Source: an uncultured Alloprevotella sp. (GTDB lineage: Bacteria > Bacteroidota > Bacteroidia > Bacteroidales > Bacteroidaceae). Taken from it: a stretch of 64,000 nucleotides of DNA. The notes below the pieces were generated by a model that saw only the letters and a list, made by a program, of their open reading frames with translations, was not told the origin of the DNA and searched no databases. Position numbers and translations under genes: made by a program. Every line of letters starts with the position of its first letter. Within the stretch, counting starts at the first letter, position 1. The stretch is from the NCBI GenBank assembly GCA_944322095.1, contig CALUNU010000004.1:1-64000 (forward strand). The letters run 5' to 3'. Positions 4,775-36,022 of the stretch are shown piece by piece.

Positions 4775-4796
4775 GAGACGCGATTCATCGCGTCTC
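4775..4796. repeat. Short hairpin repeat GAGACGCGAT/ATCGCGTCTC, copy 1
   Basis: Perfect 10-bp arms around a 2-nt centre (GAGACGCGAT, TC, ATCGCGTCTC). Near-identical copies occur at 32289-32310, 35352-35373 and 35605-35626, all intergenic. Confidence 0.8.
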
Positions 4797-4926
4797 ACCC
4801 GCTCGGGGCGCAGCCCCGCCGCGGCATTTCTCCCCAACGCTGAGGCCCATGCGGCTGAGTGGGCGCCTAGAATGGCGCCCCTCCTATGGTCGACTTCCCC
4901 TGCGGGCCCATTGTTCATTAAAAAAT

Positions 4927-4955
4927 GCCCCGCTCCCGGGAGACCGGGGCGGGGC
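4927..4955 (-). terminator. Rho-independent terminator of the SusCD operon
   Basis: GC-rich inverted repeat (GCCCCGC ... GCGGGGC) followed on the minus strand by a T-rich run. It lies 22 bp past the stop of the last gene of the operon. Confidence 0.7.
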
Positions 4956-4977
4956 GTTGGCGTTGTGGCGGCTATGG

Positions 4978-5706: not shown

Positions 5707-5733
5707 TTCGTTTCTCTGGTTAAAGGAGTTTAC

Positions 5734-7221: not shown

Positions 7222-7252
7222 TGTTTTGCTGTATCTAAATGTGAATTAATTG

Positions 7253-10222: not shown

Positions 10223-10350
10223 AATATAACCATTAAATTAAACATTGTGTATAAATCTTCATTTCTGGGGGCGGGGCTTGCCATATTGCTGCGCCCCTCG
10301 CGTCTTTTGTGACAAGTTGCCATTTTTTAAGCCCCAAACATATCAATTTG

Positions 10351-10358
10351 CAAAGATA
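10351..10358 (-). promoter_or_regulatory. Promoter -7 box for the SusC/SusD operon
   Basis: Minus-strand TATCTTTG, a match to TAnnTTTG, 129 bp upstream of the SusC ATG. A T-rich segment lies at the expected -33 distance. The rest of 10359-10849 holds no supported gene. Confidence 0.6.
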
Positions 10359-10849
10359 GCCGTTTTCCACATAACAGGGATAAAATAAATAGATATATGC
10401 TTATTTTTTTAACTGTCTGCGACGTTACAACGTTTCTTTGCCATGCTCGCTTTGCAATATTTGGTGGAAATTTCATCTACAACCATGCATTTATGCTTTC
10501 GGCCCGCTCAGCCGCACGTGCCCCGCACGGTGGGACAAACCGTGCAAACGGCGTGGCAAACAGCCCCAAACGTCCACTGAGACGACGGCGGGCGGAATGT
10601 ATAAATGCGGAAGAATATGCAGAAAAGCGCGGGGGAATGGGTGGAATGTTGCGGCACAGCCCTGCTCCGCCCGACATTCTTCCTCCCGCCGGGCGAGGTG
10701 TGCGACGACTTTACGCGGCGGGCGCTCTGCGCGGCGCTGCTTGCCGAAGGAAGAGGGGCGTTATGCGTCTTTACCTTTCGCGCCATGCTCTCCCCACGGC
10801 GACGGGCAAAGGTTGTGCGCCGTTTTCTCGTCTTTTCCCCCTTTTGTCT

Positions 10850-14236: not shown

Positions 14237-14271
14237 GCTGTATAAAATTCTATGGTTCTGTATTTTCGCGG

Positions 14272-14279
14272 CAAAATTA
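14272..14279 (-). promoter_or_regulatory. dsbD: Promoter -7 box for dsbD
   Basis: Minus-strand TAATTTTG about 36 bp upstream of the dsbD ATG. Confidence 0.55.
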
Positions 14280-14323
14280 CGCATTTATGCTGAAAGTATG
14301 CCGTCCGTTGTTGCAAAAAAGCG

Positions 14324-14372
14324 AAGCAGCGGCGCACGGCCCGGGAGTGTCCGTGGCTGCGCGCCGCTGCTT
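14324..14372 (-). terminator. Terminator after the C1 peptidase gene
   Basis: Arms AAGCAGCGGCGC and GCGCCGCTGCTT, followed on the minus strand by a six-T run. Ends the operon that starts at 17835. Confidence 0.75.
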
Positions 14373-14403
14373 TATGCGTGGAGGCCTTTTGTCATGGCCT
14401 GCG

Positions 14404-15801
14404 TCAGGGTTCGGGAGCGAAGAGAGGGTCCCATGCGGGCAGTTTCTCGGGCTCTTGCTTCAAGAGTTTCAGTGTGGCGGCGGGAACATACTTCTTTTCC
14501 ACCACGAGGCGGAACATATATTCGTCGAACCACTCGTCCGTCATGATGAGGTGGCCCTGGTAGCCTGCGTCGCTGCCCCAGGAGTTTTCCACCATCCATT
14601 TCTTGGGCTTTCCGTTGGCGTCGAGGTCTACGGCCATGAGTGTCATGGCGTGGCTCGAAGCCGAGGCGTAGGTGCTGATGCGCTCGGCCTTGCTCATCGG
14701 GAAGGAGGTGTCGAAGAGCGAGGCGTAGTCGTAGTTGTTCGGGTCGAGCCATCCGCTGCGGGCGTCGATGAATTTGCCCACGTCGCACGAGAAATACATC
14801 ATCGTGCTGTCCTTGATCGAGGCGATGGCCATCTCCTTGATTTCCTCAATGGGCAGGTTGATGTAAGTCCAGTTGCTGCCGTCGTAGACGTGGCGGTCCA
14901 GGTCGATGGTGTACGTCTTGTGATAGGGGCGTGTAGGGTCGTTCATCAGCATGACGTAGTTGTTCTTCAAGTCGGTGCCTACATATTCTTCGTAGAACGA
15001 CAGGGGCGTGTATTCCTTCGTGCCTGCGGGCCGTCCGTCGGCCGTGTGGCGCGTCCAGGTGAACTTCACGGGCGGTTCGCCCAGGCATTCGGCCAGGATG
15101 TCGTACACCGTGGCGAGCATCGTGGCTTTCTTTTCCTGCAAGGCGTCGGCCTTTTCGCCTTCGGCGGCGCTCTTGCGCAGCGCAAGGCCATATTCGCGCA
15201 GCTTCAGCGAGAGGAGCTGTGCCATGGTCGAGGTGTTTTCGGCGCTGTACGTTTCGGGCATCACGTCAGCCGGTACGACGCCATATTTCGATATGATGTC
15301 TTGTATGCCCGTAAACTGCCCTCCGTCGCTCAGCGGGTGCTGGAAGAGCCAGTTGACCGTGCGGTCGTCCATCGGTTTGTCGGCATTGTCGATGATGGCC
15401 TGCAAAAAGAGATTGGCTTTCTCCAACTGGTCGTAGAAGAAGCAGTAGTTTTGCGAGAAGCGGAAGTCACCCATGCCAAAGCGGGCTATCACCTTGGCAC
15501 GCATCACGTTGAGCCCTGTGAAGAGCCAGCAGCGCCCCGACTGCTTTTGGTCGGTGATGCCTTTCGACTCGACGCGGTTCGAAAAGTAGGTGTCGCGCGC
15601 CTGGCGGGCGGCGGGGTTGGCAGCCAGCGCGTTGATGCTGTTGGTGGCCAGTGCGTTGCGCAGGGCGCGGTCGGCGGCCTGTTCGGTGCGGCCGGCGCGC
15701 AGTTTGGCCAGCAGGTCGGCGCTGATGCCGCCGCCGGCGTTCTGTGCGGCAGCCCCTGCGGCGGGCAGGGCCAGGAGCAGGGATAAAATCGCTTTTTTCA
15801 T
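14404..15801 (-). CDS. Secreted C1-family cysteine peptidase (bleomycin hydrolase/PepC-like)
   Basis: Predicted cysteine aminopeptidase of the C1B type. The ATG at 15801 gives a signal peptide MKKAILSLLLALPAAGAAAQ and 465 residues. The active-site Cys91 sits in QKQSGRCWLF; the catalytic His lies in SSHAMTLMAV and the Asn in WMVENSWG, so the triad is complete. The C-terminal end KLPAWDPLFAPEP is typical of bleomycin-hydrolase relatives, which are normally cytosolic; the signal peptide marks the exported Bacteroidales variant. It begins 28 bp after the PAP2 gene. Confidence 0.9.
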   Translation of the reverse strand: MKKAILSLLLALPAAGAAAQNAGGGISADLLAKLRAGRTEQAADRALRNALATNSINALAANPAARQARDTYFSNRVESKGITDQKQSGRCWLFTGLNVMRAKVIARFGMGDFRFSQNYCFFYDQLEKANLFLQAIIDNADKPMDDRTVNWLFQHPLSDGGQFTGIQDIISKYGVVPADVMPETYSAENTSTMAQLLSLKLREYGLALRKSAAEGEKADALQEKKATMLATVYDILAECLGEPPVKFTWTRHTADGRPAGTKEYTPLSFYEEYVGTDLKNNYVMLMNDPTRPYHKTYTIDLDRHVYDGSNWTYINLPIEEIKEMAIASIKDSTMMYFSCDVGKFIDARSGWLDPNNYDYASLFDTSFPMSKAERISTYASASSHAMTLMAVDLDANGKPKKWMVENSWGSDAGYQGHLIMTDEWFDEYMFRLVVEKKYVPAATLKLLKQEPEKLPAWDPLFAPEP

Positions 15802-15829
15802 CGTTGTATCGTTGTTTGGTTCGGTTTGT

Positions 15830-16801
15830 TCAAGCAAATTCGGGCCCCAGGCGCGGGTTGCGCTGCACCTCATACAGGCGGTGGGCCAGTGTGTACACGA
15901 GCGGTGCGCTGAACAGGCCGCAGAGCGAGTCGATGAGATAGTGGGCCTCGATGTAGACGGTGCTCAGGCACAGCAGTATGTAGAACGGAAGGGCGCCAAG
16001 CAGCAATGGGCGCTTTGTGCGCGACAGGAGCATCATGAGGATGGTGCTCATGCCCACGTGGCTCGACGGAAAGGCAGCCGTGGGCCGTTCGCCGCTGGCT
16101 TGCGTGGCCTCGACGAGCGAGCAGAACAGCCCTTCGGGCGCCGTGCTCGGGCGCAGCTCCGTGTGGTGGCGGAAATAGTCGCCCAGCATCGGGAAGCGGC
16201 CGGCCTCGATTTCTTCCAGCCCCACGGCATGGAAGTAATATTGCGGCCCTGCCACGGGCAGGAACAGGTAGATGAGGTAGTAAACGAGGAAGCTGGTCAG
16301 GATGATGTAAGCCGTTTCGCCAAAAAGCTCGCGACGGCAGAAGAGGGGAGCCAGTGCCGTTATGAATATCAGCGGATAATAAGAGAAATAGCCCAGGTGG
16401 AACAGTTCGCTCCACACTACCGACGGCAGATGGCGTGCAAATTCGAGCGAAGGCTGGCAGCTGAAGAGTGCCTGGTCTACGCCGGCGAACACATAGTCGA
16501 GATTGGGAAACATTTGGCAGAACTCGTACGTGTCGGGATACCAGTAGCTCAGCAGCGTCAGGGGGTAGATGGTGCGTAGGATGAGGGTGGCGCGGTTGGG
16601 GGCTGCATAGTAGACGGCCATGGTGGCCGCCATGCCCAGCAGCACGAACGAGCGGCCCATGAGCAGGCGCAGGGGAGCCGACATCTCTTCGCGGAAGAGC
16701 AGAATGAGCACGGTTGTCAGGAGTGTATAGGCCAGGGTAGCCTTTTCCACGCCGAGCAGGCCGCGTTGTCGGGGCAGCGAGGTGAGTAGGTTCAGAGCCA
16801 T
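15830..16801 (-). CDS. PAP2-superfamily membrane phosphatase/phosphotransferase
   Basis: A 323-residue multi-pass membrane protein with the two core PAP2 motifs: AAFPSSHVGMST (catalytic His in SSH) and STVYIEAHYLIDSLCG (second catalytic His and Asp). Members dephosphorylate lipid phosphates or act as phosphotransferases such as inositol-phosphoceramide synthases of the AUR1 type, which share this layout with extra N-terminal membrane helices. It overlaps the upstream epimerase gene by 10 bp, so the two probably act together in lipid or envelope metabolism. I cannot separate phosphatase from phosphotransferase by sequence. Confidence 0.82.
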   Translation of the reverse strand: MALNLLTSLPRQRGLLGVEKATLAYTLLTTVLILLFREEMSAPLRLLMGRSFVLLGMAATMAVYYAAPNRATLILRTIYPLTLLSYWYPDTYEFCQMFPNLDYVFAGVDQALFSCQPSLEFARHLPSVVWSELFHLGYFSYYPLIFITALAPLFCRRELFGETAYIILTSFLVYYLIYLFLPVAGPQYYFHAVGLEEIEAGRFPMLGDYFRHHTELRPSTAPEGLFCSLVEATQASGERPTAAFPSSHVGMSTILMMLLSRTKRPLLLGALPFYILLCLSTVYIEAHYLIDSLCGLFSAPLVYTLAHRLYEVQRNPRLGPEFA

Positions 16802-18091: not shown

Positions 18092-19939
18092 TCAGCGCAC
18101 GGCGAACTTCACGCTCTGCGTTGCGCCGGCCTGCTGCATGCGGGCCACGTAGACGCCTGCGGGCAGGCCCGTGGTGCCGATGGTCTCGCCGTCGGTGGCG
18201 GTGCAGCTCATCACGCGGCGGCCCGTCGTGTCGTACACGTCGATGGTGGCGCGGCCCGTGCAGCTCACCGTCAGCCCGCCGTCCACGACGCGCAGGCCGC
18301 CCTCAGTAGCTTCGATGTGGCCGATGCCGCTCGTGCCGTCGGCCATCTCCACCGTGATGCTCTCGGGGCAGTCGGCCGGGACGACGAGCGTGCCGTGGAT
18401 GGGTTCGTAGGCATAGTTGGTCTCGCCCTCAACAACATACGTGCCGGGCTTCAGGCCCATGCCGATGCCGCTCGTTCCGCCCATGCTGACGGGTTTTCTG
18501 TTGCCTTCGCCGTCGATCAGATACATGCTCGAGAACAAGTAGCCTACCTCCCCGTCCTTGGTGTAGTAGAGCTTGAAGAAGCGATGGTCGGTCAGGTCCA
18601 CGGGCACCGTCACGTCGGCACCGTCAACGGCGAACGTTCCGCCCGGCATAAAGGGGAGGGCGTAGCTGTAATTGCTGATCCAGACCACCGATGCGAAGTA
18701 TTCGTACGTGCCGTTGGCAAAGCGCGGCAGACTCTCGTAGAAGTCGCCCGCATCGCTCACAAAGATGTCGTCTTCCACGTAGCACATCGACTGCACCTTG
18801 CCCTGCGGCGTCGTCACGTCGAACGTCACGCCGTGGAACGCCGACGGGTCGGTGTCGATCTCCACGGTGACGGGAGCGTCGGCCACGGTGAACGGCTGGT
18901 TGAAGTGGTAGCCGTCCTCGTTGTTCTCGTCGGCGAAGCTTCCGGTGCACAGGTAGGAGCCGGAAGCCAGGTGGAGCCCTTCGTCGCTGGCGTTGATGAT
19001 GAGTTTCTTATCGCCCACCAGTTTCGTCACGCCGGGAGAAAAGCCCAGCGTTTCGTCGAAGACGAGCGTCACAGGCTGCACGTTGGCAAAGTCGAGCGTC
19101 ACGTTGAAGTTGCTGCCGCCCACGCTCAGCACGTCGCGCAGATAGGCCTCGTCCCCGTCGGCGTTGATGTCGACATAAGCTTCATAGTCGTAGTTGCCTT
19201 CGGGTAGCACTGCGTAGGATGTGGCGGTTGTTCCGTCGTAAGCGGGGTTGACATACATGAGATAGTACCCGTCACCGTCATTCAGGGTGATGGTGCCCGA
19301 GAAGTAGTCGGGCGTGTCCCCGGGGGCGTAGTAGCCCGTGCACGTAAAGTTCACGCGGCGATGGCCGGCGTACGAAAAGGCCACACTGGCGCCCCCGGCG
19401 GTCGTGGCGAACGCCTGGCTCAGTTGGGTGTAGTGGTCGGCGCGGCACCAGCTGTTGAAGCTCACGTCGGGAGCGGCCAGCGCTTCGGCCGTGCCGTCGG
19501 CGCCGGTGATGGCGTTGAACGAGCACATGCTGTATTCGTCCGACTGCACCGTGGGGTCGGCTCCCACGTCGCAGCCTTCCAGCGGCCGGCCGTTCTCGTC
19601 CGTCACGCTGAGGCGCACCGTCACGAAGTTGTCGGCCACGGCGTAGTTCACCGTCATGGGCGAGCTGCCCACGGTGAAAGTCGTTTTGCCGCCGGTGGGG
19701 AGGCTCGTCTCGTAGTCCTCCGTGCTCAGGCTGGCTCTCATGTAATAGGTGCCCGGTTCGAGGTCGAGCGTTGCCGTCGGTTGGTAGGGCGATGTTCCGC
19801 TGACGGCATAGTCGAGGCCTTCCTGGTAGATGCGCACTGTGCCGAGGATATACCCTTCGTCCGTCGTAAAGGTCACTTCCGTGGCCCGTGCCGTCACGCC
19901 TGCCAGCAGGAGCAGGCCGCAGAGTAGAATTTTTTTCAT
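18092..19939 (-). CDS. Secreted protein with T9SS type-A sorting domain, function unknown
   Basis: A 615-residue exported protein. The chosen ATG gives the signal peptide MKKILLCGLLLLAGVTARA. The body is a chain of beta-sandwich-like segments rich in Thr, Asp, Gly and Tyr (repeated patterns such as LEPGTYYMRAS, GNYDYEAYVDI, GTYVVEGE), suggesting carboxypeptidase-regulatory-like or Ig-like modules. The last 75 residues, from about GIGHIEATEGG to QSVKFAVR with IDVYDTTGRRVMS and GLPAGVYVARM, form a type IX secretion C-terminal domain, so a surface or released location is likely. I see no enzyme motif. Single-gene unit. Confidence 0.82.
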   Translation of the reverse strand: MKKILLCGLLLLAGVTARATEVTFTTDEGYILGTVRIYQEGLDYAVSGTSPYQPTATLDLEPGTYYMRASLSTEDYETSLPTGGKTTFTVGSSPMTVNYAVADNFVTVRLSVTDENGRPLEGCDVGADPTVQSDEYSMCSFNAITGADGTAEALAAPDVSFNSWCRADHYTQLSQAFATTAGGASVAFSYAGHRRVNFTCTGYYAPGDTPDYFSGTITLNDGDGYYLMYVNPAYDGTTATSYAVLPEGNYDYEAYVDINADGDEAYLRDVLSVGGSNFNVTLDFANVQPVTLVFDETLGFSPGVTKLVGDKKLIINASDEGLHLASGSYLCTGSFADENNEDGYHFNQPFTVADAPVTVEIDTDPSAFHGVTFDVTTPQGKVQSMCYVEDDIFVSDAGDFYESLPRFANGTYEYFASVVWISNYSYALPFMPGGTFAVDGADVTVPVDLTDHRFFKLYYTKDGEVGYLFSSMYLIDGEGNRKPVSMGGTSGIGMGLKPGTYVVEGETNYAYEPIHGTLVVPADCPESITVEMADGTSGIGHIEATEGGLRVVDGGLTVSCTGRATIDVYDTTGRRVMSCTATDGETIGTTGLPAGVYVARMQQAGATQSVKFAVR

Positions 19940-20046
19940 AACCTGTCTGTTTATAAGGTTCAACAAAAACGTTTGTCGCCCTTTGCCGTCCAGTTCCATA
20001 GAATGTCCGTGTAGCTGAGAGTCGTCATCAGGCGCTAATCCTCTCG

Positions 20047-20205: not shown

Positions 20206-20935
20206 AGGCAGCCGTCCGCGCTGCGTTTGCGCTGTTCTGATGGTGTGGCTGCGTGGTGCATTTCCGCGGGAAACACCTGTGCTCGCTGCATACCACCGGT
20301 GTTGCTGCCGGGGCAGCCGTCCGCGCTGCGTTTGCGCTGTTCTGATGGTGCGGCTGCGTGGTGCATTTCCGCGGGAAACGCCTGTGTTCGCTGCGTACCG
20401 CCGGTGCATTCGCCGGGTCTGCCGGCCCTATCGGGGCCGCACTATTCTATAGCCGCGGGTGAGGGAAGCGAACCCGCGGAAGAGCGACAAGAGGCATGTT
20501 GGCCCCAAGGGGGGCCAACGTCTGCGGCGGTGCTTCGGTGCTGGGCGTGCATTGAGCTGCGGCGGCGGTTCAGCTTCTCTGTTGTTCGACCCCTTTGGGG
20601 CCGCAGATGGTGGATACATCTTTCCGCGGGTGAGCGGAGCGAACCCGCGGTTATAGAGTAGTGCGGCCCCGATGGGGCCGATGTCTGCGGGACAGCCGTC
20701 CGCGCTGCGTTTGCGCTGTTCTGGTGGTGCGGCTGCGTGGGGCATTTCCGCGGGAAACGCCTGTGCTTGCCGCGTACCGCCGGTGCATTCGCCGGGTCTG
20801 CCGGCCCTATCGGGGCCGCACTATTCTATAACCGCGGGTGAGGGAAGCGAACCCGCGGAAGAGCGTCAAAGGGGATGTGGGCCCCAAGGGGGTCCAACGT
20901 CTGCGGCGGTGCTTCGGCGTGCATTGAGATGTGCC
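20206..20935. repeat. Hairpin array 1
   Basis: A block of spacer units (GGCAGCCGTCCGCGCTGCG) at 20207, 20310 and 20692 alternates with a three-hairpin module. The module appears inverted at 20424-20520, direct at 20585-20682 and inverted at 20803-20900. Its hairpins are CCCCTTGGGG-type, CCGCGGGT/ACCCGCGG and GGCCCC/GGGGCC, with conserved TATAGAGTAGT between the last two. The array runs up to the dprA stop codon. Short open frames inside it repeat from copy to copy and are not credible genes. Confidence 0.9.
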
Positions 20936-20955: not shown

Positions 20956-22062
20956 TCATTCCTGCCACAGGTAGCGGCCGCCGGGCAGGGGCTTGACGAG
21001 TCCTTTCATTTCCAGTTCGAAGAGCAGGGCGGTCAGGCGGTAGACGGGCAGGTTGGCCTCTACGGCCAGGCGGTTGATGTTCATGCCCTCGGTGCCGCGC
21101 AGCAGGTCGCGCACGCGCGTCTCCTCCGTCGTCAGGGTGGGGAAGAGTTCGCGCTGTACGGGCTTGTCGGGCGCGGCCGTCTGCCATCCCAGGGCCGCGG
21201 CCACGTCGGCGGCCGACGTCACCATGGCGGCGCCGTTGCTGCGTATCAGGGCGTTGCACCCTGCGGAATATTCGTCCGTCGTGCGTCCCGGAAAGGCCAG
21301 TACGTCGCGGCCATATTCGCGCGCCAGCCGTGCCGTGATGAGGGCCCCGCCGTGGCTGGCGCTCTCCACGACGAGCGTGGCGTCGCTCATGCCCGCCACG
21401 ATGCGGTTGCGGCGCACGAAGTTGCCCTTGTCGGGGTTCGTTCCGAAGGTATATTCGGTGAGCAGTCCGCCGTGGCGCGTCATTTCGACGGCCGTAGAGC
21501 GGTGCAGCGGCGGGTAGATGCGGTCGAGCCCGTGGGCCAGCACGGCCACCGTGGGCAGACCCGCGTCGAGTGCGGCGCGGTGGGCGTGTATGTCGACACC
21601 ATAGGCCAGTCCGCTCACGATGAGCGTGCCCGGCACGAGCTGCGCCAGGTCGCGGCAGAGCGCGGCGCAGAGCCGTTTGCCATATTCCGTGATGCGCCGC
21701 GTGCCCACCACCGTGAGCACGTGGGGCGCGTTGAGGCAGGCCGTGCCCCGCCCGAAGAGCACGAGGGGCGCGTCGGGGCAGGCGTCGAGCCGCCGCGGCC
21801 AGCCCGCTGCGGCGGGCGTGAGCACGTCGATGCCTTTCTCGGCGGCCAGGCGCAGCTCCGTCCCGGCATGAGCGAGCGCCTCGTCCCACGCCGCCAGCGC
21901 ACGGCGCAGGCGTGGCGTGGCGTCGGGCGTGAGCGTTTCGGGCGCGTGGCGCCGCTCGTAGACGGCCGCGGCCGACCCTGCCGCGCGGTAGAGCTTCAGG
22001 GCCGTGGCCGTCCCGATGCCCGGCAGGCGGCTCAGCGCCAGCGCACAGAGCGTTTCGTCCAT
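20956..22062 (-). CDS. dprA: DNA-processing protein DprA (Smf)
   Basis: DprA binds single-stranded DNA and loads RecA during natural transformation. The start MDETLCALAL gives 368 residues, the usual length; the frame upstream only overlaps the thioesterase gene. An N-terminal helix-hairpin region (ALSRLPGIGTATALKLY) precedes the Rossmann core with VVGTRR, SGLAYGVDIHAH, GGLLTEYTFGTNPDKGNF and VRRNRIVAGMSDATLVVE. A C-terminal winged-helix segment (MNINRLAVEANLPVYRLTALLFELEMKG) ends the protein. Last gene of a three-gene operon; hairpin array 1 begins just past its stop. Confidence 0.95.
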   Translation of the reverse strand: MDETLCALALSRLPGIGTATALKLYRAAGSAAAVYERRHAPETLTPDATPRLRRALAAWDEALAHAGTELRLAAEKGIDVLTPAAAGWPRRLDACPDAPLVLFGRGTACLNAPHVLTVVGTRRITEYGKRLCAALCRDLAQLVPGTLIVSGLAYGVDIHAHRAALDAGLPTVAVLAHGLDRIYPPLHRSTAVEMTRHGGLLTEYTFGTNPDKGNFVRRNRIVAGMSDATLVVESASHGGALITARLAREYGRDVLAFPGRTTDEYSAGCNALIRSNGAAMVTSAADVAAALGWQTAAPDKPVQRELFPTLTTEETRVRDLLRGTEGMNINRLAVEANLPVYRLTALLFELEMKGLVKPLPGGRYLWQE

Positions 22063-22072
22063 GGCGCGGTGC

Positions 22073-22474
22073 TTAGAGATATTGGGCAAAGGCCTCGTCC
22101 AGCTCCTTGCAGGCTGCCAGCCGCCCGTCGACGAGGCACACCGTCTCCACCGTGGAGCGCAATGCGAGGCGTTCGTCGGGCAGGCGGTAGATGTCCTGTT
22201 CGAAGATGTATTTGATGCCCTCCTTGCGCAGTCCCAGGCGCGATACGAAGCGGTCGCCGCTGCGCAGCGGTGTCTTGAAGGCCAGGTGCATGCGTGCCAC
22301 GACGGCGTCGATGCCCTGCTCGTGCAGGCGGGCAAAACTGATGCCTTCCGACAGTAGAAATTCGTGGCGCGTATGCTCCGTGTAGTGCTGATAGTTGGCG
22401 TTGTTCACGATGCCTTGCAGGTCGCATTCGTAGTCGCGCACCTTCATGGGCAGTTCGAAGATGTATCGGGTCAT
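22073..22474 (-). CDS. Acyl-CoA thioesterase, YbgC/4HBT hotdog family
   Basis: A 133-residue single hotdog domain. The 4HBT active-site pattern is present: VRDYECDLQGIVNNANYQHY, with the catalytic Asp in DLQGIV and following YxxYxExxR. Predicted to hydrolyse acyl-CoA thioesters in the cytosol; the exact substrate is unknown. It ends 10 bp before dprA and follows the DUF2851 gene by 53 bp, in the order common in Bacteroidales. Confidence 0.88.
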   Translation of the reverse strand: MTRYIFELPMKVRDYECDLQGIVNNANYQHYTEHTRHEFLLSEGISFARLHEQGIDAVVARMHLAFKTPLRSGDRFVSRLGLRKEGIKYIFEQDIYRLPDERLALRSTVETVCLVDGRLAACKELDEAFAQYL

Positions 22475-23902: not shown

Positions 23903-25110
23903 CATGTCGGGCTGCGGAGATGCTCCTGCAGTCGTACTTCGCAGTTGTTCGACCCCCTTGGGGCCGCAGATGATGTGCGCCTCCCTCCGCGGGTTCGCTT
24001 CGCTCACCCGCGGTTACAGAGTAGTTCGGCCCTTTTAGGGCCGGCCGCATCAGAGGGTGGCTGTGGGTTCCGCAGGGTTCGCTTGGCTCACCCGCGGTTA
24101 CAGAGTAGTTCGGCCCTTTTAGGGCCGGCCACATCAGAGGATGGCTGTGGGTTCCGCAGGGTTCGCTTCGTTCTCTCTGCGGTTATCGCGTGACACATCT
24201 GTCGGGGCGCGTGCTTCCGCGAGGCCGACTGCCCCATCGGGGCCGCACTATTCTATAGCCGCGGGTGAGCGTAGCGAACCCGCGGAAGACCGTCAAAGGA
24301 GATGAGGGCCCCATGGGGGTCCAACGCCTGGGGCGACGCGTCAGTGCATGTCGGGTTGCGGAGATGTTCCTGCGGTCGTTCCTCGTTGTGGTTCGACCCC
24401 CTTGGGGCCGCAGATGATGTACACCTCCCTCCGCAGGGTTCGCTTGGCTCACCCGCGGTTACAGAGTAGTTCGGCCCTTTTAGGGCCGGCCACATCAGAG
24501 GGTGGCTGGCGTCTCCGCAGGGTTCGCTTGGCTCACCCGCGGTTATAGAGTAGTTCGGCCCTTTTAGGGCCGGCCGCATCGGAGGGTGGCTGGCGTCTCC
24601 GCAGGGTTCGCTTCGCTCTCTCCACGGTTATGGCGTGACACACCTGTCGGGGCGCGTGCTTCCGCGAGGCCGACGGCCCCATCGGGGCCGCACTATTCTA
24701 TAGCCGCGGGTGAGCGTAGCGAACCCGCGGAATACCGTCAAAGGAGATGAGGGCCCCATGGGGGGCCAACGCCTGGGGCGACGCGTCAGTGCATGTCGGG
24801 TTGCGAAGATGTTCTGGCAGTCGTTCCTCGCTGTGGTTCGACCCCCTTGGGGCCGCAGATGATGTGCATCTCCTTCCGCAGGGTTCGCTCCGCTCACCCG
24901 CGGTTACAGAGTAGTTCGGCCCTTTTAGGGCCGGCGGCATCAGAGGGTGGCTGGCGTCTCCGCAGGGTTCGCTTCGCTCACCCGCGGTTACAGAGTAGTT
25001 CGGCCCTTTTAGGGCCGGCGGCATCAGGGGGTGGCTGGCGTCTCCGCAGGGTTCGCTTCGCTCCCCCGCGGTTACAGAGTAGTTCGGCCCTTTTAGGGCC
25101 GGCCGCATCG
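23903..25110. repeat. Hairpin array 2 with 84-bp units nested in a 445-bp higher-order repeat
   Basis: The marker CATGTCGGG recurs at 23903, 24347 and 24792, a 444-445 bp period. Inside each period an 84-bp unit is repeated. CCGCAGGGTTCGCTT or a close variant starts at 23987, 24070 and 24154, then 24431, 24515 and 24599, then 24876, 24960 and 25044. Each 84-bp unit contains ACCCGCGGTTACAGAGTAG followed by the perfect hairpin GGCCCTTTTAGGGCC. Inverted copies of the general module sit near 24230-24330 and 24675-24770. No credible gene inside. Confidence 0.93.
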
Positions 25111-25520: not shown

Positions 25521-25584
25521 ACAGCCGTTTGGCCCCTTGCACCGCCGTTGTGGATACGTCGAAAGGTGGCAGGCATGAAAAAAT

Positions 25585-25612
25585 CCCGCCCGGGCCGTGC
25601 GGCCCGGGCGGG
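25585..25612 (-). terminator. Strong terminator after the repeat-containing T9SS cargo gene
   Basis: Perfect 12-bp arms CCCGCCCGGGCC and GGCCCGGGCGGG around a 4-nt loop, followed on the minus strand by ATTTTTTC. Confidence 0.85.
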
Positions 25613-25663
25613 AGGTTGAGGCGTCAGGCGTCGTGCAGACGTCTGACGTGAGAGAGGATGCTT

Positions 25664-28294
25664 TTACTTCACAACCACCTTTTGGCCACCGATGATGTAG
25701 AGGCCGGCGGGCAGGCCGTTGGCAGCCTGGCTGCGCTGTACGCCCGTGCGGAGCAGGCGGCCGTCGATGCTGTAAACGTCGACGGGAGCGTTGGCGGCAT
25801 CGGCCGTTACGCCGTCGATGCCTACTGTGCTGTCGGCCAGACTGATGCCGATGAAGTTGGTGTTGCTCGTGCCGGCGATGGTGAACGTTACGGTTTCGAA
25901 CTCACCCGTCCACGTGTAGGTGGCGTCGTCCCACGTGCCGCAGTCGGCCGTGGCCGAGAACTTGTCGCTGCCGTCGTACCACGTGATGGCGGTGAACATC
26001 TTGCCTTCGGGAGCCGTGAGCGTTACGGTGGCACCCTTGTAGACGCGTAACTGAGGCAGCTGCGTCGTAAAGTTGAGATACATGCGCGGAGCCGTCGAGC
26101 CGCCTTCGGCCGTCAGCGTTACGCCGTCCTGCGTGATGGGGGCGGTGATGTTGCCCTGCGTCGGGTTGTTGCTGTCGGAAACGGGCAGGCCCCATGCGTT
26201 GGCGTTGAAGTTGAAGACAACGTCGGCAACGGGAGGCTCGGGGCCGACGGGCTCGTCGCCGCCTTCTTCGCCGCGGATGACGACGTTGCGCACTTCCCAC
26301 GTGCCGGCTACGTCGGCCGTGCTGGTGTAGACGAAGGCAATCTGGATGGTCTTGCCGGCGTAGGCCGAGAGGTCGGCCGTGGCGTCCACGAAGGTCCAGC
26401 CGTCAGCTTCGGGCCAGCCCGTCACGTCGAGCTTGGTCCATTCGCCGCCCTGCTCGCGTACCTGCACCGAAACGGCGTCGGCCAGGGTGCCCTTGAAGAA
26501 GTTGCAGGCCTGCTCGAAGGTGAGCGTCACGGTGCCCGTCTGGGCCGTCAGGTCGATTTCGGGCGAGATGAGCCAGCTTTCGGCAGCATAGTTGGTCTCG
26601 TTGACGTAGGCGCTGGCCTTGATGCACGAGTAGCGGTCGTCGTTGTTCCATACGTAGGAGAGCTCTTCGGGCATCGTCACGTTGTCGATGGTGAAGTCGC
26701 CCTGATCGGCAGCGAACGTCTCGCTGAAGATGACGCCTTCCTCGACGGGAGGCTCGGGCGTCGTGCCGCTTTCGCCGCGTACGGTGACGTTGCGCACTTC
26801 CCACGTGCCGGCTACGTCGGCCGTGCTGGTGTAGACGAAGGCGATCTGGATGGTCTTGCCCGCATAGGCCGAGAGGTCGGCCGTGGCGTCCACGAAGGTC
26901 CAGCCGTCAGCTTCGGGCCAGCCCGTCACGTCGAGCTTGGTCCATTCGCCGCCCTGCTCGCGTACCTGCACCGAAACGGCGTCGGCCAGGGTGCCCTTGA
27001 AGAAGTTGCAGGCCTGCTCGAAGGTGAGCGTCACGGTGCCCGTCTGGGCCGTCAGGTCGATTTCGGGCGAGATGAGCCAGCTTTCGGCAGCATAGTTGGT
27101 CTCGTTGACGTAGGCGCTGGCCTTGATGCACGAGTAGCGGTCGTCGTTGTTCCATACGTAGGAGAGCTCTTCGGGCATCGTCACGTTGTCGATGGTGAAG
27201 TCGCCCTGATCGGCAGCGAACGTCTCGCTGAAGATGACGCCTTCCTCGACGGGAGGCTCGGGCTGCTCGCCTGCCTCGCCTTGGCCTTCGACGCTGACGT
27301 TCTTCACTTCCCACGTACCGGCGTCGCCGTCCTGGCTGGTGTAGACGAAAGCGATTTCAATGGTCTTGCCCACGTAGGCCGAGAGATCGGCCGTGGCATC
27401 TACCCAGTCCCAGTTGTTGCCTGCGGGCCATGCGCTCACGTCGAGCTTGGTCCACTGGCCGCCCTGCTCGCGCACCTGTACGGAGAGAGCGTCGGCCACG
27501 GCACCGTCGAAGAAGTTGGCGCAGTGGGAGAAGCTCAGCGTGGCTGCGGTGGCTTTCGTCAGGTCGATGGCCGGCGAGATGAGCCAGCTTTCAGCAGCCA
27601 GGTCCTGGCCGCCGATGAAGCAGCTGGCCTTCATGTAGCCGTGGGAGCTGTCGTGGTTCCATACGTAGCCACCGCCGGCGGGTTCCTGCACGTTGTCGAT
27701 GGTGAAGTCGCCCTGGCCGTCGGCAAACGTCTCGCTGAAGAACGTGACGTCGCCGCCGACGGGCGGTTCGGGCGTGTCGCCGCCACCGTCAACGGAGGTT
27801 TCGGTGCAGGCCACGGCGATGCTCTTCACCCAGACGGCTTTCGTGTTGTCGTCGATGGTGATGACGCCGTCAGTGGCCGGGCCCGTAAAGGTGTACACCT
27901 GGTTGGCGTTGGTGGTGCCGCTGGCGATTTCCGTCACGTCGCCCGTGAACTCAACGCCGCCCACGTTGACGCTGATGGTGTTGCCTGCACCGCTGGCCGA
28001 GGCTGTGATGCTCACGGACGTCACCTGCGTGAGGCTTTGACCGGCCGTCAGCGTGAACACGCCGGCGGGATTTTTCGACGAGCCGAACTGAACGCCACGG
28101 GGTTCGTATGTGCCGCCCCCCTGTACGTTTTTCTCAAACTGCTGAGACGCGATGCTGGCCGTCCATGGCAGTTCACCTGCCCCGACAGTCAAGTCCTTGT
28201 CCGTAAAGACCGAAGACACATCGGCACTCATCGTTCCGAACACGGCGGCAAAGAGCACCGTGAGGAACAACTTCAAAGTGTAGAATTTCTTCAT
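25664..28294 (-). CDS. Large secreted T9SS cargo protein with tandem adhesin-like domains
   Basis: An 876-residue exported protein; the ATG gives signal MKKFYTLKLFLTVLFAAVFGTMSA. Residues about 25-180 form a beta domain shared with the paralogue at 30328-32094. Three copies of a roughly 168-residue jelly-roll module follow (about 181-350, 353-520 and 521-688). Each has SETFA, QGDFTIDNV, AESWLISP, DLSAY.GKTI.IAFVYTS and GTWEV.NV, resembling cleaved-adhesin/MAM-like domains. Copies 2 and 3 are almost identical even at DNA level. A further beta domain and a C-terminal sorting domain (VDVYSIDGRLLR, NGLPAGLYIIGGQKVVVK) finish the protein. Ligand unknown; carbohydrate or protein adhesion is a reasonable inference. 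Confidence 0.85.
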   Translation of the reverse strand: MKKFYTLKLFLTVLFAAVFGTMSADVSSVFTDKDLTVGAGELPWTASIASQQFEKNVQGGGTYEPRGVQFGSSKNPAGVFTLTAGQSLTQVTSVSITASASGAGNTISVNVGGVEFTGDVTEIASGTTNANQVYTFTGPATDGVITIDDNTKAVWVKSIAVACTETSVDGGGDTPEPPVGGDVTFFSETFADGQGDFTIDNVQEPAGGGYVWNHDSSHGYMKASCFIGGQDLAAESWLISPAIDLTKATAATLSFSHCANFFDGAVADALSVQVREQGGQWTKLDVSAWPAGNNWDWVDATADLSAYVGKTIEIAFVYTSQDGDAGTWEVKNVSVEGQGEAGEQPEPPVEEGVIFSETFAADQGDFTIDNVTMPEELSYVWNNDDRYSCIKASAYVNETNYAAESWLISPEIDLTAQTGTVTLTFEQACNFFKGTLADAVSVQVREQGGEWTKLDVTGWPEADGWTFVDATADLSAYAGKTIQIAFVYTSTADVAGTWEVRNVTVRGESGTTPEPPVEEGVIFSETFAADQGDFTIDNVTMPEELSYVWNNDDRYSCIKASAYVNETNYAAESWLISPEIDLTAQTGTVTLTFEQACNFFKGTLADAVSVQVREQGGEWTKLDVTGWPEADGWTFVDATADLSAYAGKTIQIAFVYTSTADVAGTWEVRNVVIRGEEGGDEPVGPEPPVADVVFNFNANAWGLPVSDSNNPTQGNITAPITQDGVTLTAEGGSTAPRMYLNFTTQLPQLRVYKGATVTLTAPEGKMFTAITWYDGSDKFSATADCGTWDDATYTWTGEFETVTFTIAGTSNTNFIGISLADSTVGIDGVTADAANAPVDVYSIDGRLLRTGVQRSQAANGLPAGLYIIGGQKVVVK
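26284..27261 (-). repeat. 504-bp tandem duplication inside the cargo gene
   Basis: Sequence from about 26284 to 26757 recurs at 26788-27261 with an offset of exactly 504 bp (168 codons). Only a few third-position changes are visible, for example GGCAATCTGG against GGCGATCTGG. A third, more diverged copy follows to about 27770. Confidence 0.93.
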
Positions 28295-28435
28295 GACTTT
28301 TGTTGGATTAAAATAGTGAAACATGTTGATTGGTTTTCTCATCTTGTGTTTTGGGGTGGCCCGGGCTGCCTCGTAGGCCGCGCTCTTACCGCGATGGCGG
28401 GTGGCTCTGCCGCGCAAAGCCAGACTTTCCCGTTG

Positions 28436-28443
28436 CAAAGTTA
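28436..28443 (-). promoter_or_regulatory. Promoter -7 box for the 876-residue cargo gene
   Basis: Minus-strand TAACTTTG, 142 bp upstream of the ATG. The leader contains AAACCAATCAACA (28324-28336), also present in the leader of the paralogous gene (32104-32116). Confidence 0.5.
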
Positions 28444-28603: not shown

Positions 28604-29985
28604 GAGCTGCGGCGGTGGTTCGGCTTCTCTGTTGTTCGACCCCCTTGGGGCCGCAGATGGTGGATGCATCTTTCCGCGGGTTCGCTCTGCTCCCCCCGCG
28701 GTTATAGAGTAGTGCGGCCCCGATGGGGCCGATGTCTGCGGGGCAGTCGTCAGCGTTGCGTTTGCGCTGTTCTGATGGTGTGGCTGCGTGGTGCATCTCC
28801 GCGGAAATCGCTCATGGCCGCGGCGTACCTCTGGTGCGTTCGCCGGTTCTGCCGGCCCTATTGGGGCCGCACTATTCTATAGCCGCGGGTGAGGGAAGCG
28901 AACCCGCGGAATACCGTCAAAGGAGATGTGGGCCCCAAGGGGGTCCAACGCCTGTGGCGGTGGTTCAGTGCTGGGCGTGCATTGAGCTGCGGCGGTGGTT
29001 CGGCTTCTCTGTTGTTCGACCCCCTTGGGGCCGCAGATGGTGGATACATCTTTCCGCGGGTTCGCTCTGCTCACCCGCGGTTATAGAGTAGTGCGGCCCC
29101 GATGGGGCCGATGTCTGCGGGGCAGCCGTCCGCGCTGCGTTCGTGCTGTTCTGATGGCGTGGCTGCGTGGGGCATTTCCGCGGAAATCGCTCATGGCCGC
29201 GGCGTACCTCTGGTGCATTCGTCGGGTCTGCCGGCCCTATCGGGGCCGATGTCTGCGGGGCAGCCGTCCGCGCTGCGTTCGTGCTGTTCTGATGGCGTGG
29301 CTGCGTGGGGCATTTCCGCGGAAATCGCTCATGGCCGCGGCGTACCTCTGGTGCGTTCGCCGGGTCTGCCGGCCCTATCGGGGCCGCACTATTCTATAGC
29401 CGCGGGTGAGGGAAGCGAACCCGCGGAAGAGCGTCAAAGGGGATGGTGGGCCCCAAGGGGATCCAACGCCTGTGGCGGTGCTTCGGTACTGGGCGTGCAT
29501 TGAGCTGCGGCGGTGGTTCGGCTTCTCTGTTGTTCGACCCCTTTGGGGCCGCAGATGGTGGATGCATCTTTCCGCGGGTTCGCTCTGCTCACCCGCGGTT
29601 ATAGAGAAGTGCGGCCCCGATGGGGCCGATGTCTGCGGGGCAGCCGTCCGCGCTGCGTTTGCGCTGTTCTGATGGTGCGGCTGCGTGGGGCATTTCCGCG
29701 GGTTCGCTCTGCTCCCCCCCCCCCCGCGGTTATAGAGTAGTGCGGCCCCGATGGGGCCGATGTCTGCGGGGCAGTCGTCAGCGTTGCGTTTGCGCTGTTC
29801 TGATGGCGTGGCTGCGTGGGGCATTTCCGCGGAAATCGCTCATGGCCGCGGCGTACCTCTGGTGCGTTCGCCGGGTCTGCCGGCCCTATCGGGGCCGCAC
29901 TATTTTATAGCCGCGGGTGAGGGAAGCGAACCCGCGGAAGAGCGTCAAAGGAGATGTGGGCCCCAAGGGGGTCCAACGCCTGTGG
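28604..29985. repeat. Hairpin array 3
   Basis: Alternating direct and inverted copies of the three-hairpin module. Direct copies lie near 28636-28735, 29017-29112, 29533-29635 and 29695-29765. Inverted copies lie near 28850-28950, 29380-29475 and 29880-29980. They are separated by the GGCAGCCGTCCGCGCTGCG spacer and a GAGCTGCGGCGGTGGTTCGG spacer. The interval between GAGCTGCGG markers is 380 bp for the first pair and 518 bp for the second because one spacer unit is duplicated. One hairpin loop contains a run of 12 C at 29714-29725. No credible gene inside. Confidence 0.9.
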
Positions 29986-32288: not shown

Positions 32289-32310
32289 GAGACGCGGTTC
32301 ATCGCGTCTC
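32289..32310. repeat. Short hairpin repeat GAGACGCG/CGCGTCTC, copy 2
   Basis: GAGACGCGGT TC ATCGCGTCTC, one mismatch from copy 1. It is preceded by TGTCCGCCAC, also found before copies 3 and 4. Confidence 0.75.
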
Positions 32311-32423
32311 TTTCGCCGCGGGACGGCGGCAGGGGCGTTTTCCCCGCGGCCGACGGCGCGTGCGGGCAAAGGAATTTTATATCTTTACGGCTTGCACTGA
32401 AAATAAAAAACGTTGGATTGCTT

Positions 32424-33503
32424 ATGAAGATTACGATTTGCAGCCGAAAACTGAAAGGGGGGCGCCGCTCGCTCTATCTGAACTTTGCCGAGCGCGGCGA
32501 GCGGCGCCGCAAGGCGATGGGCATCGTGCTGGAACGGCCCGTGGACGCGGCTACGCGCGAGATTAACCGAAGGAAACTGCGCCAGGCCACGATGATTAGG
32601 GCGCGGTATGAGCTGTCGAACATCGCTTCGGTGTGGGAACTGCCGCCGCTGGAACGCCGCGTGGTGCTGCTGGTCGAGGCGTATGCGCGCTTCGAGCGGA
32701 CGTATGCCGGGACGGACGTGGCGGTGGTGAGGGCCGTGGGGCGCCACCTGGTGCGCTTCCTGCCGTCGGCCGACATCTACCTGCACGAGGTGGACACGGC
32801 GTTTTGCGTGCGCTTCCTGGCTTACCTGCAAGAGCGGCTGCACGGCTCGTCGCCCGCGGGCTATTTCAAGAAGTTCCGCCGCTTCCTGGCACAGAGCCGC
32901 CGGCGCGGACTGCTGGCGGCCGACCCTTCGGAGGGAATACGCGTGGTGGCCGACGAGGGGCTGTCGAAAGCCGTGCTGGCCTTTGGCGAACTGAACCGCC
33001 TGGCGGCGGCGCCCTGCGCGGTGCCCGAGGTGAAGCGGGCCTTTCTCTTTGCCTGCAACACGGGGCTGCGCTGGTGTGACGTGCGGCGGCTGCGCACCTC
33101 CGACATCGACGCCGAGCGGGGCGAGATGACGGTGGTGCAGCGCAAGGTCGAGGGCCACTCGCGGCGCGCCCTGCTGCGTGTGGGGCTCAACGCCAACGCC
33201 CGCCGGCTGCTGGCGGCCGTGCCGAGGGAGGGGGGCACGGTGTTTGACCTGCCGTCGTACGGCTATGCGTCGCGGGCTTTGGCGCAGTGGGCCCGCGCGG
33301 CGGGCATCGGCAAGCACCTGACGTTCCATTGCGCGCGGCATACGTTCATATCGAACCTCATTGCGCAGGGCACGCATCTGAGCGTGGCGGCCTCGCTGGC
33401 GGGCCACTCGTCGACGCGCCACACCGAGCGCTACGTGCATCTTTCCGACCACCGGCGGCGCGAGGCCGTGGACCGCCTGGCGCCCCTGCGCATGGAGCTC
33501 TGA
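32424..33503 (+). CDS. Tyrosine recombinase (phage-integrase family) with arm-type DNA-binding domain
   Basis: Predicted site-specific recombinase. The ATG at 32424 (MKITICSRKLKGG) is preferred over a TTG two codons upstream. The 359-residue protein has an N-terminal arm-binding domain (RRSLYLNFAERGERRRKAMG), a core-binding helical domain (LVRFLPSADIYLHEVDTAFC) and a catalytic domain. The catalytic residues are all present: Arg near 215 (NTGLRWCDVRRL), Lys in VVQRKVEG, HxxR near 302 (HCARHTF), GHSS near 326 and nucleophile Tyr near 337 (ERYVHL). No phage, conjugation or cargo genes surround it and no tRNA attachment site is visible. It lies between hairpin arrays 3 and 4. A role in phase variation or array rearrangement is possible but unproven. 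Confidence 0.92.
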   Translation: MKITICSRKLKGGRRSLYLNFAERGERRRKAMGIVLERPVDAATREINRRKLRQATMIRARYELSNIASVWELPPLERRVVLLVEAYARFERTYAGTDVAVVRAVGRHLVRFLPSADIYLHEVDTAFCVRFLAYLQERLHGSSPAGYFKKFRRFLAQSRRRGLLAADPSEGIRVVADEGLSKAVLAFGELNRLAAAPCAVPEVKRAFLFACNTGLRWCDVRRLRTSDIDAERGEMTVVQRKVEGHSRRALLRVGLNANARRLLAAVPREGGTVFDLPSYGYASRALAQWARAAGIGKHLTFHCARHTFISNLIAQGTHLSVAASLAGHSSTRHTERYVHLSDHRRREAVDRLAPLRMEL

Positions 33504-34829: not shown

Positions 34830-35351
34830 CTTGCGCCCGTGGTTGGCGGGGGCGTTTTTCGCGCGCGTATATATATAAGGTGTGGGGGTAGGGGGCATGC
34901 AGCGAGGCCAGCGCCCCCAAGGGGGGCGAACTATTCTATAACCGCGGGTAAGCGCAGCGCGCCCGCGGTTGGCGGGGGGCGTTTTTCGCGCGCGTATATA
35001 TATAAGGTGTGGGGGTAGGGGGCATGCAGCGAGGCCAGCGCCCCCAAGGGGGGCGAACTATTCTATAACCGCGGGTAAGCGCAGCGCGCCCGCGGAAAGT
35101 CGACGCATATATATGTTGGCCCCAAGGGGGGCCAACCGCCGCGAGAAAACATCACGCACACCCCATGTCTCGCAAACGCCATGCGTCGTGCCTCGCGGGC
35201 GTTCGACCCCCTTGGGGCCGAAGTGGAGAGGGGAGCCCTGTCCGCGGGCGCGCTTCGCTTACCCGCGGTTATAGAGTAGTTCGACCGCTTTGCGGCCGCT
35301 TGCCTCGCGGAGTGCTGGCTGTCTCCATCCGCATGGGATGTCCGCCACCTG

Positions 35352-35373
35352 GAGGCGCGATGAATCGCGTCTC
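35352..35373. repeat. Short hairpin repeat, copy 3
   Basis: GAGGCGCGAT GA ATCGCGTCTC. Here it is part of a longer imperfect palindrome with outer arms GGATGTCCGC and GCGGACATCC. Confidence 0.75.
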
Positions 35374-35604
35374 TACGCAGCGGACATCCAGCCTCGCTGC
35401 TATGTGCCGCGCCCTCGTGCGGCCATGCTTGCGCAGGGGCGATTTTCCCCCGTAACCGACCCCCTTGGGGCCGAAGTGGAGAGGGGAGCCCTGTCCGCGG
35501 GCGCGCTTCGCTTACACGCGGTTATAGAGTAGTTCGACCGCTTTGCGGCCGCATGCCTCGCGGAGTGCTGGCTGTCTCCATCCGCATGGGATGTCCGCCA
35601 CCTA

Positions 35605-35626
35605 GAGGCGCGATGAATCGCGTCTC
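35605..35626. repeat. Short hairpin repeat, copy 4
   Basis: Same as copy 3, carried in the second 253-bp unit of array 4. Confidence 0.75.
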
Positions 35627-35845
35627 TACGCAGCGGACATCCAGCCTCGCTGCTATGTGCCGCGCCCTCGTGCGGCCATGCTTGCACAGGGGTGATTTTC
35701 CCCCGTAACCGGACTGTGAAGGGCTCAGGAGTTGGCTGTTTGGAGAGAGATGTTTCGCGGCTCCGTTTGGCGCGAAAATGGGAAACGTCAGGGTATGAGG
35801 CGGTTAGCTTCGGAGGGGCGTGCGCGAGGTGCGCGATTGGGCGTT

Positions 35846-36022
35846 TTTCGCCACTATATGGCACAAAATCGGTGGGATGTTTGCCCTGGAGAGTGCCCAT
35901 GGAACGAAAAAAGCATCCCATGGATCGGCCGATCCATGGGATGTTGTGGCGGAGGGGTGGGATGGATGCCCCGTATGCCCCTCTTCGAACGCTGGAAGGA
36001 GCGCGGAGGCATGTCGCAATTT
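35846..36022 (+). repeat. Dispersed intergenic element, diverged copy C
   Basis: CGCCACTATATGGCAC at 35850 matches the internal block of copies A and B, and a perfect 30-bp palindrome lies at 35914-35943. The T-rich left end and the GTCCGCTTTAACG right end of the full copies are not recognisable, so this is a partial or diverged relative. It lies 50 bp before the S41 protease stop. Confidence 0.6.

What the first reader, a model, noticed from the sequence alone, without database searches (positions are those of the whole stretch)
28604..29985. Hairpin arrays made of one three-hairpin module in alternating orientation
All four arrays (20206-20935, 23903-25110, 28604-29985, 34841-35710) use the same roughly 100-bp module: a CCCCTTGGGG hairpin, a CCGCGGGT/ACCCGCGG hairpin, the linker TATAGARTAGT and a GGCCCC/GGGGCC hairpin. 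Inverted and direct copies alternate, separated by two kinds of spacer, giving long intramolecular folding potential. I count about nine inverted and thirteen direct modules. The arrays sit at operon borders. This differs from ordinary single REP-like elements in its scale and ordered alternation.
Basis: seen in the sequence. Interest (0 to 1): 0.7.

Follow-up and report, generated by a model that had tools for sequence, protein, structure and literature searches.

The report
Three-hairpin REP arrays with IS200-like transposase
The hairpin arrays are this Bacteroidales bacterium's version of the REP/BIME repeats known from E. coli, but each unit is a three-hairpin element carrying a different sequence tag, and the repeats surround a single-copy IS200-like transposase from a subclass reported to have no such repeats; the same pairing recurs across much of the phylum Bacteroidota.

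Summary
The arrays are real. The window holds 9 reverse and 14 forward modules in four intergenic arrays; the genome has at least 88 matches. Alternation is frequent but not strict (51 opposite against 21 same-orientation neighbours). Each module is palindrome A, about 25 nt, palindrome B, a conserved linker, and a second A. Read from the other strand, the linker ends in TA(A/G)CC at the foot of B.

The genome's only Y1 (HUH) transposase gene lies inside one of these arrays; so does its sister-species orthologue. It carries the signature of TnpA_Y1 subclass 1.2, listed in the literature as having no REPs. Across Bacteroidota, 65 of 92 homologues surveyed have repeats within about 500 nt (28% in intergenic-rich controls). 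34 of 89 carry the full A-TA(A/C/G)C-B-A' layout, against 0 of 840 control windows.

The copying unit looks like an inverted dimer with a fixed ~70-nt internal spacer. One dimer is present in only one of two sister species, and modules at orthologous sites have diverged far more than flanking genes.

Verdict: BIME-like arrays, a new REP type paired with a transposase subclass not known to have REPs. That the transposase moves them is inferred, not shown.

The parts
20206..20935 (.). Array 1 (- + -), between dprA (20956-22335, minus) and a minus-strand secreted protein gene (18092-19999)
20423..20513 (-). module, array 1
   Evidence: nhmmer
20588..20680 (+). module, array 1
   Evidence: nhmmer
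20802..20894 (-). module, array 1
   Evidence: nhmmer
23903..25110 (.). Array 2 (+ +p - + +p - + +p +p; p = truncated), 445-bp period, 5' of the DUF2851 gene
23951..24043 (+). module, array 2
24059..24127 (+). truncated module (first A palindrome missing), array 2
24231..24321 (-). module, array 2
24322..24394 (.). internal '-+' dimer spacer, 73 nt
24395..24488 (+). module, array 2
24502..24572 (+). truncated module, array 2
24674..24764 (-). module, array 2
24840..24933 (+). module, array 2
24940..25017 (+). truncated module, array 2
25036..25101 (+). truncated module, array 2
28604..29985 (.). Array 3, the finding itself (+ - + - + +p -)
28638..28731 (+). module, array 3
28853..28945 (-). 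module, array 3
28946..29017 (.). internal '-+' dimer spacer, 72 nt; the dimer 28849-29114 folds at -100 kcal/mol as ssDNA
29018..29110 (+). module, array 3: palindrome A, ~25 nt, palindrome B (CCGCGGGTTCGCTCTGCTCACCCGCGG), linker TTATAGAGTAGTG, second palindrome A
29370..29463 (-). module, array 3
29536..29628 (+). module, array 3
29691..29758 (+). truncated module, array 3
29881..29973 (-). module, array 3
34841..35710 (.). Array 4 (-p - + +), between the TauE/SafE gene and the S41 peptidase gene
34913..34970 (-). truncated module, array 4
35040..35130 (-). module, array 4
35205..35297 (+). module, array 4
35458..35550 (+). module, array 4

Best explanation
The arrays are a REP/BIME-like population of small non-autonomous elements served by a single-copy, IS200-related HUH/Y1 transposase (TnpA_Y1 subclass 1.2) encoded elsewhere in the same genome (G000 C26:6729-7181).

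Shown by sequence: the basic element is palindrome A, a ~25-nt spacer, palindrome B, a ~12-nt linker, and a second palindrome A. Read from the other strand, the linker ends in TA(A/G)CC running into the foot of B. Two elements pair tail to tail around a ~70-nt spacer of constrained length, making an inverted dimer. Dimers are repeated locally, with junctions of variable length, to form arrays. The transposase gene is itself embedded in such an array.

Inferred: the transposase recognises the tagged hairpin on single-stranded DNA (for example at replication forks), cuts and rejoins, and so copies or moves dimers to new intergenic sites. Arrays then grow by local duplication, either TnpA-driven or by template switching or unequal recombination. 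The tag would play the guide role that GTAG plays in known REPs. The hairpins may also affect mRNA ends or act as recombination sites, but that is secondary and untested.
For: Location: the sole PF01797 match in G000 lies inside a large array on C26; the sister-species orthologue (G016, 77% identical) has module copies on both sides.

Class: DHVH and YIKNQKEHH match the subclass 1.2 signature in PMC6006769.

Generality: repeated 16-mers occur near 37/49, 10/17 and 18/26 surveyed homologues, against 12/43 intergenic-rich windows and 81/840 windows overall; Fisher 4.8e-6 pooled. The full A-TA(A/C/G)C-B-A' layout occurs in 18/46, 6/17 and 10/26 loci, against 0/840 windows, 0/40 control loci and none in shuffles. 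TA(A/C/G)C ranks first of 67 foot patterns in all three sets, while GT(A/G)G is not enriched.

Dispersal: at least 88 matches in G000, 40 in G004, 32 on 11 contigs of G402, a different family.

Activity: G016 carries an extra ~340-bp '-+' dimer beside a module shared with G000. Modules at orthologous sites are 66% identical while most aligned flanking stretches are 87-94% identical; modules at different sites within each species are 71% and 75.5%. The dominant palindrome in each genome matches the copies flanking its own tnpA.

Unit: fixed '-+' spacer length with largely unrelated sequence between sites. Stems show compensatory changes: 54 cells against 17.3 in shuffles, 0/500.
Against: No biochemistry: binding, cleavage and movement are not shown. 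Some genomes have elements without a detected tnpA: G429 (99% complete, 29 model hits) and G003 (7 hits). In G720 the elements sit almost only around tnpA, and 80-kb samples of G253, G376 and G156 held none, so dispersal is not universal. 27 of 92 homologue loci lack local repeats, and 55 of 89 lack the full layout under strict criteria. Species-specific homogenisation could be gene conversion without TnpA. G000 is a draft assembly with several contigs ending in arrays, so copy numbers are lower bounds.
Confidence: 0.8

Rival explanations
1. The arrays grow and homogenise only by replication slippage, template switching and unequal recombination between long palindromes; the transposase gene merely landed or persists in one array and does not move the elements.
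For: Strong within-site similarity (spacers 93% identical within a site against 59% between) and direct duplications show local tandem amplification. G429 and G003 have elements without a detected tnpA. A 5.7-kb block displaced between G000 and G016 has arrays at the G016 junctions, as recombination between repeats would give.
Against: Does not explain dispersal to many unrelated sites, the dimer present at one orthologous site only, or the phylum-wide association with one transposase subclass.
Confidence: 0.13
2. The elements are selected regulatory hairpins (transcription terminators, mRNA 3'-end stabilisers or topoisomerase sites) and only secondarily repeated.
For: All four arrays lie between genes, downstream of the upstream gene's 3' end; stems show compensatory changes.
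Against: Terminator-like sites in the region are no more frequent than in shuffles (15 against 16.6); three of the four arrays have no T run of 5 or more; strong candidate terminators with T tails lie elsewhere (25584-25613, 35914-35943). No Rfam family matches. Modules diverge faster than genes between sister species.
Confidence: 0.05
3. The arrays are MITE-type remnants of an active IS200/IS605 insertion sequence whose ends are the hairpins.
For: The protein passes the NCBIfam IS200/IS605 cut-off (80.4 bits, cut-off 55) and fails the REP-associated transposase one (23.7 against 80).
Against: One gene copy per genome in G000 and G016; palindromes form inverted dimers and arrays on both sides of the gene rather than a left and right end; many copies without any gene remnant.
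Confidence: 0.02

Closest known systems
REP/BIME (REPIN) elements with TnpA_REP (RAYT), e.g. E. coli and Stenotrophomonas REPtrons
   Same: Extragenic repeated palindromes in inverted pairs separated by linkers; pairs amplified into arrays; a single-copy HUH/Y1 transposase gene embedded in the same repeats; an A.C mismatch within the outer stems, recalling the stem bulge of E. coli REPs.
   Different: Unit is about 95-100 nt with three palindromes instead of 20-65 nt with one; foot tag is TA(A/G/C)C, not GT(A/G)G; the transposase belongs to class 1 (subclass 1.2) instead of class 2.
TnpA_Y1 subclass 1.2 (Quentin et al. 2018, PMC6006769)
   Same: DHxH and Y---Q--HH motifs, about 150 aa, low copy number, Bacteroidetes.
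   Different: That paper lists subclass 1.2 as having no REPs; here it lies in REP-like arrays, and this recurs across Bacteroidota.
GTAG- and CGTC-tagged palindromes (PMC3733652)
   Same: Dispersed palindromes with a short tag at one foot.
   Different: The tag here is TA(A/G/C)C, and palindromes come as a composite of three.
BrickBuilt MITE of Porphyromonas gingivalis (PMC4596501)
   Same: Intergenic repeat arrays in a Bacteroidales species.
   Different: BrickBuilt is a tandem 23-nt minisatellite with a leader and tail whose terminal repeats resemble P. gingivalis ISs.
IS200/IS605 insertion sequences (IS608, ISDra2)
   Same: Transposase family and motifs; solved relatives by sequence include 2xm3, 2fyx and the ISHp608 transposase 2a6m.
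   Different: No multicopy autonomous element with defined ends.

Membership tests
REP/BIME with TnpA_REP | Short palindromes repeated in many extragenic sites | tested here: met
   At least 88 matches in G000; the four window arrays lie between genes
REP/BIME with TnpA_REP | Pairs in inverted orientation with linkers, repeated as arrays | tested here: met
   51 opposite against 21 same; fixed '-+' spacer, variable '+-' spacer
REP/BIME with TnpA_REP | REPtron: transposase gene flanked by the same repeats | tested here: met
   G000 C26 and G016 C21; 65/92 homologues have local repeats
REP/BIME with TnpA_REP | GT(A/G)G tetranucleotide at the 5' foot | tested here: not met
   GT(A/G)G not enriched (ranks 19, 33, 57 of 67); TA(A/C/G)C ranks first in all sets
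REP/BIME with TnpA_REP | Class 2 TnpA_Y1 (NP after the catalytic Tyr motif) | tested here: not met
   YIKNQKEHH; NF047646 23.7 bits below its cut-off of 80
REP/BIME with TnpA_REP | Transposase cleaves single-stranded REP | not testable with these tools
   needs purified protein
TnpA_Y1 subclass 1.2 | DHxH and Y---Q--HH motifs, about 148 aa | tested here: met
   DHVH, YIKNQKEHH, 151 aa
TnpA_Y1 subclass 1.2 | Low genomic copy number | tested here: met
   one copy in G000 and in G016
TnpA_Y1 subclass 1.2 | Reported absence of REPs | tested here: not met
   this is the new point
TnpA_Y1 subclass 1.2 | Subclass-specific C-terminal domain | not tested
   the published profile was not at hand
IS200/IS605 insertion sequence | HUH Y1 transposase | tested here: met
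   PF01797 93 bits, NF033573 80 bits
IS200/IS605 insertion sequence | Several near-identical gene-bearing copies with defined ends | tested here: not met
   single copy in G000 and G016; palindromes are dispersed without the gene
BrickBuilt MITE | Tandem 23-nt unit without spacers | tested here: not met
   array periods are 84-445 bp

The most novel reading that the evidence does not exclude
Bacteroidota hold a third superfamily of REP elements: composite three-palindrome units tagged TA(A/G/C)C(C), mobilised as inverted dimers by TnpA_Y1 subclass 1.2. Each genome has its own stem sequences but the same architecture, so a widespread transposase subclass thought to lack a substrate has one.
Probability: 0.68. 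Interest if true: 0.8.

Novelty: new variant of a known kind. Interest (0 to 1): 0.7.

Why it matters
REP elements and their domesticated transposases have mostly been studied in Proteobacteria through the GTAG tag, so searches built on that tag miss these. The result gives a transposase subclass with no known substrate a specific, testable ssDNA substrate. It offers an independent case of transposase-repeat co-evolution outside class 2. Several contigs of this assembly end inside such arrays, so they may also explain where related assemblies break. The elements could serve as strain-typing markers and as sites of rearrangement.

Tried and rejected
Rfam search of the window: no match at gathering thresholds. 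tRNA scan: none. Viral contigs: core pattern absent. Array ORFs as remnants of a gene: no Pfam match above cut-off. Intrinsic terminators: not above shuffles. A first control of random windows (0/40) was too lenient because those windows are mostly coding; it was supplemented by 840 sliding windows, 43 of them intergenic-rich, which raised the background to 10% and 28%. Strict TAAC as the tag held in the discovery set but weakly in the hold-outs; the degenerate TA(A/C/G)C was chosen after seeing all sets, so its first rank there is not fully independent.

Full report
What is in the window. The core pattern matches 23 times with up to two mismatches where 0.01 is expected. A profile search gives 9 reverse and 14 forward modules, several of them truncated. 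Arrays 2 and 4 break strict alternation. All four lie between minus-strand genes, including those for DprA, a DUF2851 protein, a TauE/SafE permease and an S41 peptidase. Array GC is 65-66% against 62% for the window.

Anatomy. Aligning 63 modules from the genome gives: palindrome A (typically CGACCCCCTTGGGGCCG), about 25 unconserved nt, palindrome B (CCGCGGGT..ACCCGCGG), linker (T/C)TAYAGARTAGT, and a second palindrome resembling A. The linker and stems are the conserved parts. With this structure, 54 cells carry changes on both sides of a pair, against 17.3 in shuffles (0/500 reach it), and slid structures do worse. The two A stems vary with compensation; B is nearly invariant within this genome. 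One '-+' dimer folds as ssDNA at -100 kcal/mol, z = -13.3.

Two spacers, one unit. The spacer in '-+' pairs is 64-75 nt in 24 of 29 cases (97-98 nt in the array around the transposase), while '+-' gaps run from 57 to 396 nt. The '-+' spacer sequence is 93% identical within a site but 59% between sites (51% when shuffled). The repeating and probably moving unit is therefore the '-+' dimer, amplified locally, with junctions of arbitrary length.

Genome-wide. The own genome (2.34 Mb draft, 30 contigs) has at least 88 matches on many contigs, several of which end inside arrays. The sister species G016 (record CASFRV01, uncultured Bacteroidales bacterium) has at least 69 model hits. G035, G432 and G429 in the same genus have 63, 30 and 29 diverged hits with the same A-B-GGTTA-A layout and other stem sequences. 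The core is absent from the viral collection.

The transposase. The only Y1_Tnp (PF01797) match in G000 is a 151-aa gene inside a >3-kb array on contig C26. The G016 orthologue (77% identical) has module variants on both sides. It has DHVH and YIKNQKEHH, the signature of TnpA_Y1 subclass 1.2 in Quentin et al. 2018 (PMC6006769). It passes the NCBIfam IS200/IS605 model and fails the REP-associated transposase model. That paper lists subclass 1.2 with no REPs; its automatic search used the GT(A/G)G tag. I did not see its supplement, and the literature search covers open-access papers only.

Is the pairing general? Homologues occur in 198 of 393 Bacteroidales genomes, 22 of 58 in the genus and 155 of 395 Bacteroidota. 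Of those whose flanks I could read, repeated 16-mers lie within about 500 nt of 37/49 (order), 10/17 (genus hold-out) and 18/26 (phylum hold-out). Three of the 49 lack the subclass 1.2 Y motif and show no repeats. The first control, 0 of 40 random loci, was lenient. A better one gives 81/840 windows and 12/43 intergenic-rich windows; 65/92 against 12/43 is Fisher 4.8e-6, and the hold-outs alone, 28/43, give p = 0.001. Those windows overlap and some hold true elements of their genomes, so the comparison is conservative in one way and not fully independent in another. A strict descriptor (A hairpin, linker, TA(A/C/G)C, B hairpin, 12-50 nt, A' hairpin) is met at 18/46, 6/17 and 10/26 loci, against 0/840 windows, 0/40 control loci and no shuffles; five other tags on the same flanks give 0-4 loci. 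At the feet of hairpins TA(A/C/G)C ranks first of 67 patterns in all three sets, while GT(A/G)G is not enriched. The degenerate form was chosen after seeing all sets. The layout is visible by eye in distant relatives (L234, L247, L258).

Dispersal of other genomes' elements. G004 (complete, same genus): 40 matches at about a dozen sites. G402 (another family): 32 on 11 contigs. G401 and G008: two sites each in 80 kb; G253, G376, G156: none in 80 kb. G720 (same class, different order): almost only at the transposase locus. So transposase-flanking repeats are common but dispersal differs between lineages.

Turnover between sister species. Most aligned flanking stretches shared by the window and G016 contig C24 are 87-94% identical, and all four array sites are occupied in both. 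Yet modules at orthologous sites are only 66% identical, against 71% and 75.5% between different sites within G000 and G016. Each genome's common palindrome type is also the type around its own transposase gene. At one orthologous site both species share a near-identical module, but G016 has an extra ~340-bp '-+' dimer of its own type. A 5.7-kb block (window 4908-10636) sits in G016 at the array-4 site with arrays at both ends and an array at the vacated join; the window has no arrays at the block's edges.

Reading. These are BIME-like arrays served by a subclass 1.2 TnpA: they work like REP/BIME elements, but fail two features of the GTAG-REP/class 2 TnpA_REP family (tag and transposase class), so I file them as a new variant and not as a member. 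That the transposase mobilises them is inferred from position, generality, matching of repeat type to resident transposase, and a dimer presence/absence difference; it is not shown. G429 and G003 carry elements without a detected transposase, which may be loss, assembly gaps or independence. Local amplification by recombination surely contributes.

Noticed in passing
window 4775-4796, 32289-32310, 35352-35373, 35605-35626; also G016 C24: A second, unrelated palindrome family GAGACGCGATKMATCGCGTCTC recurs in intergenic DNA (4 matches, 0 expected) and near G016 arrays.
   Followed up: partly
window 4908-10636 against G016 C24: A 5.7-kb block is displaced between the two sister species and in G016 is bounded by arrays at both ends; direction of the event not determined.
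   Followed up: partly
G016 C24, array-1 site (reverse-complement coordinates 14178-15900): DNA next to the array in G016 reads like a transposase gene of another IS type with interruptions, absent from the window; not searched against any family library.
   Followed up: no
window 32418-33503 (+): Tyrosine recombinase gene (Phage_integrase, SAM-like domain) standing alone between arrays 3 and 4.
   Followed up: no
window 25664-28438 (-): Large secreted protein with near-identical internal repeats and a MAM-like domain match; the internal repeats align in several registers between the species.
   Followed up: no
G429 and G003 (same genus): Genomes with diverged three-palindrome elements (29 and 7 model hits) but no detected subclass 1.2 transposase.
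   Followed up: no
L083, L084, L128, L139 flanks: Each transposase locus in other genomes carries its own, sequence-unrelated palindrome set; useful material for a co-evolution study.
   Followed up: partly
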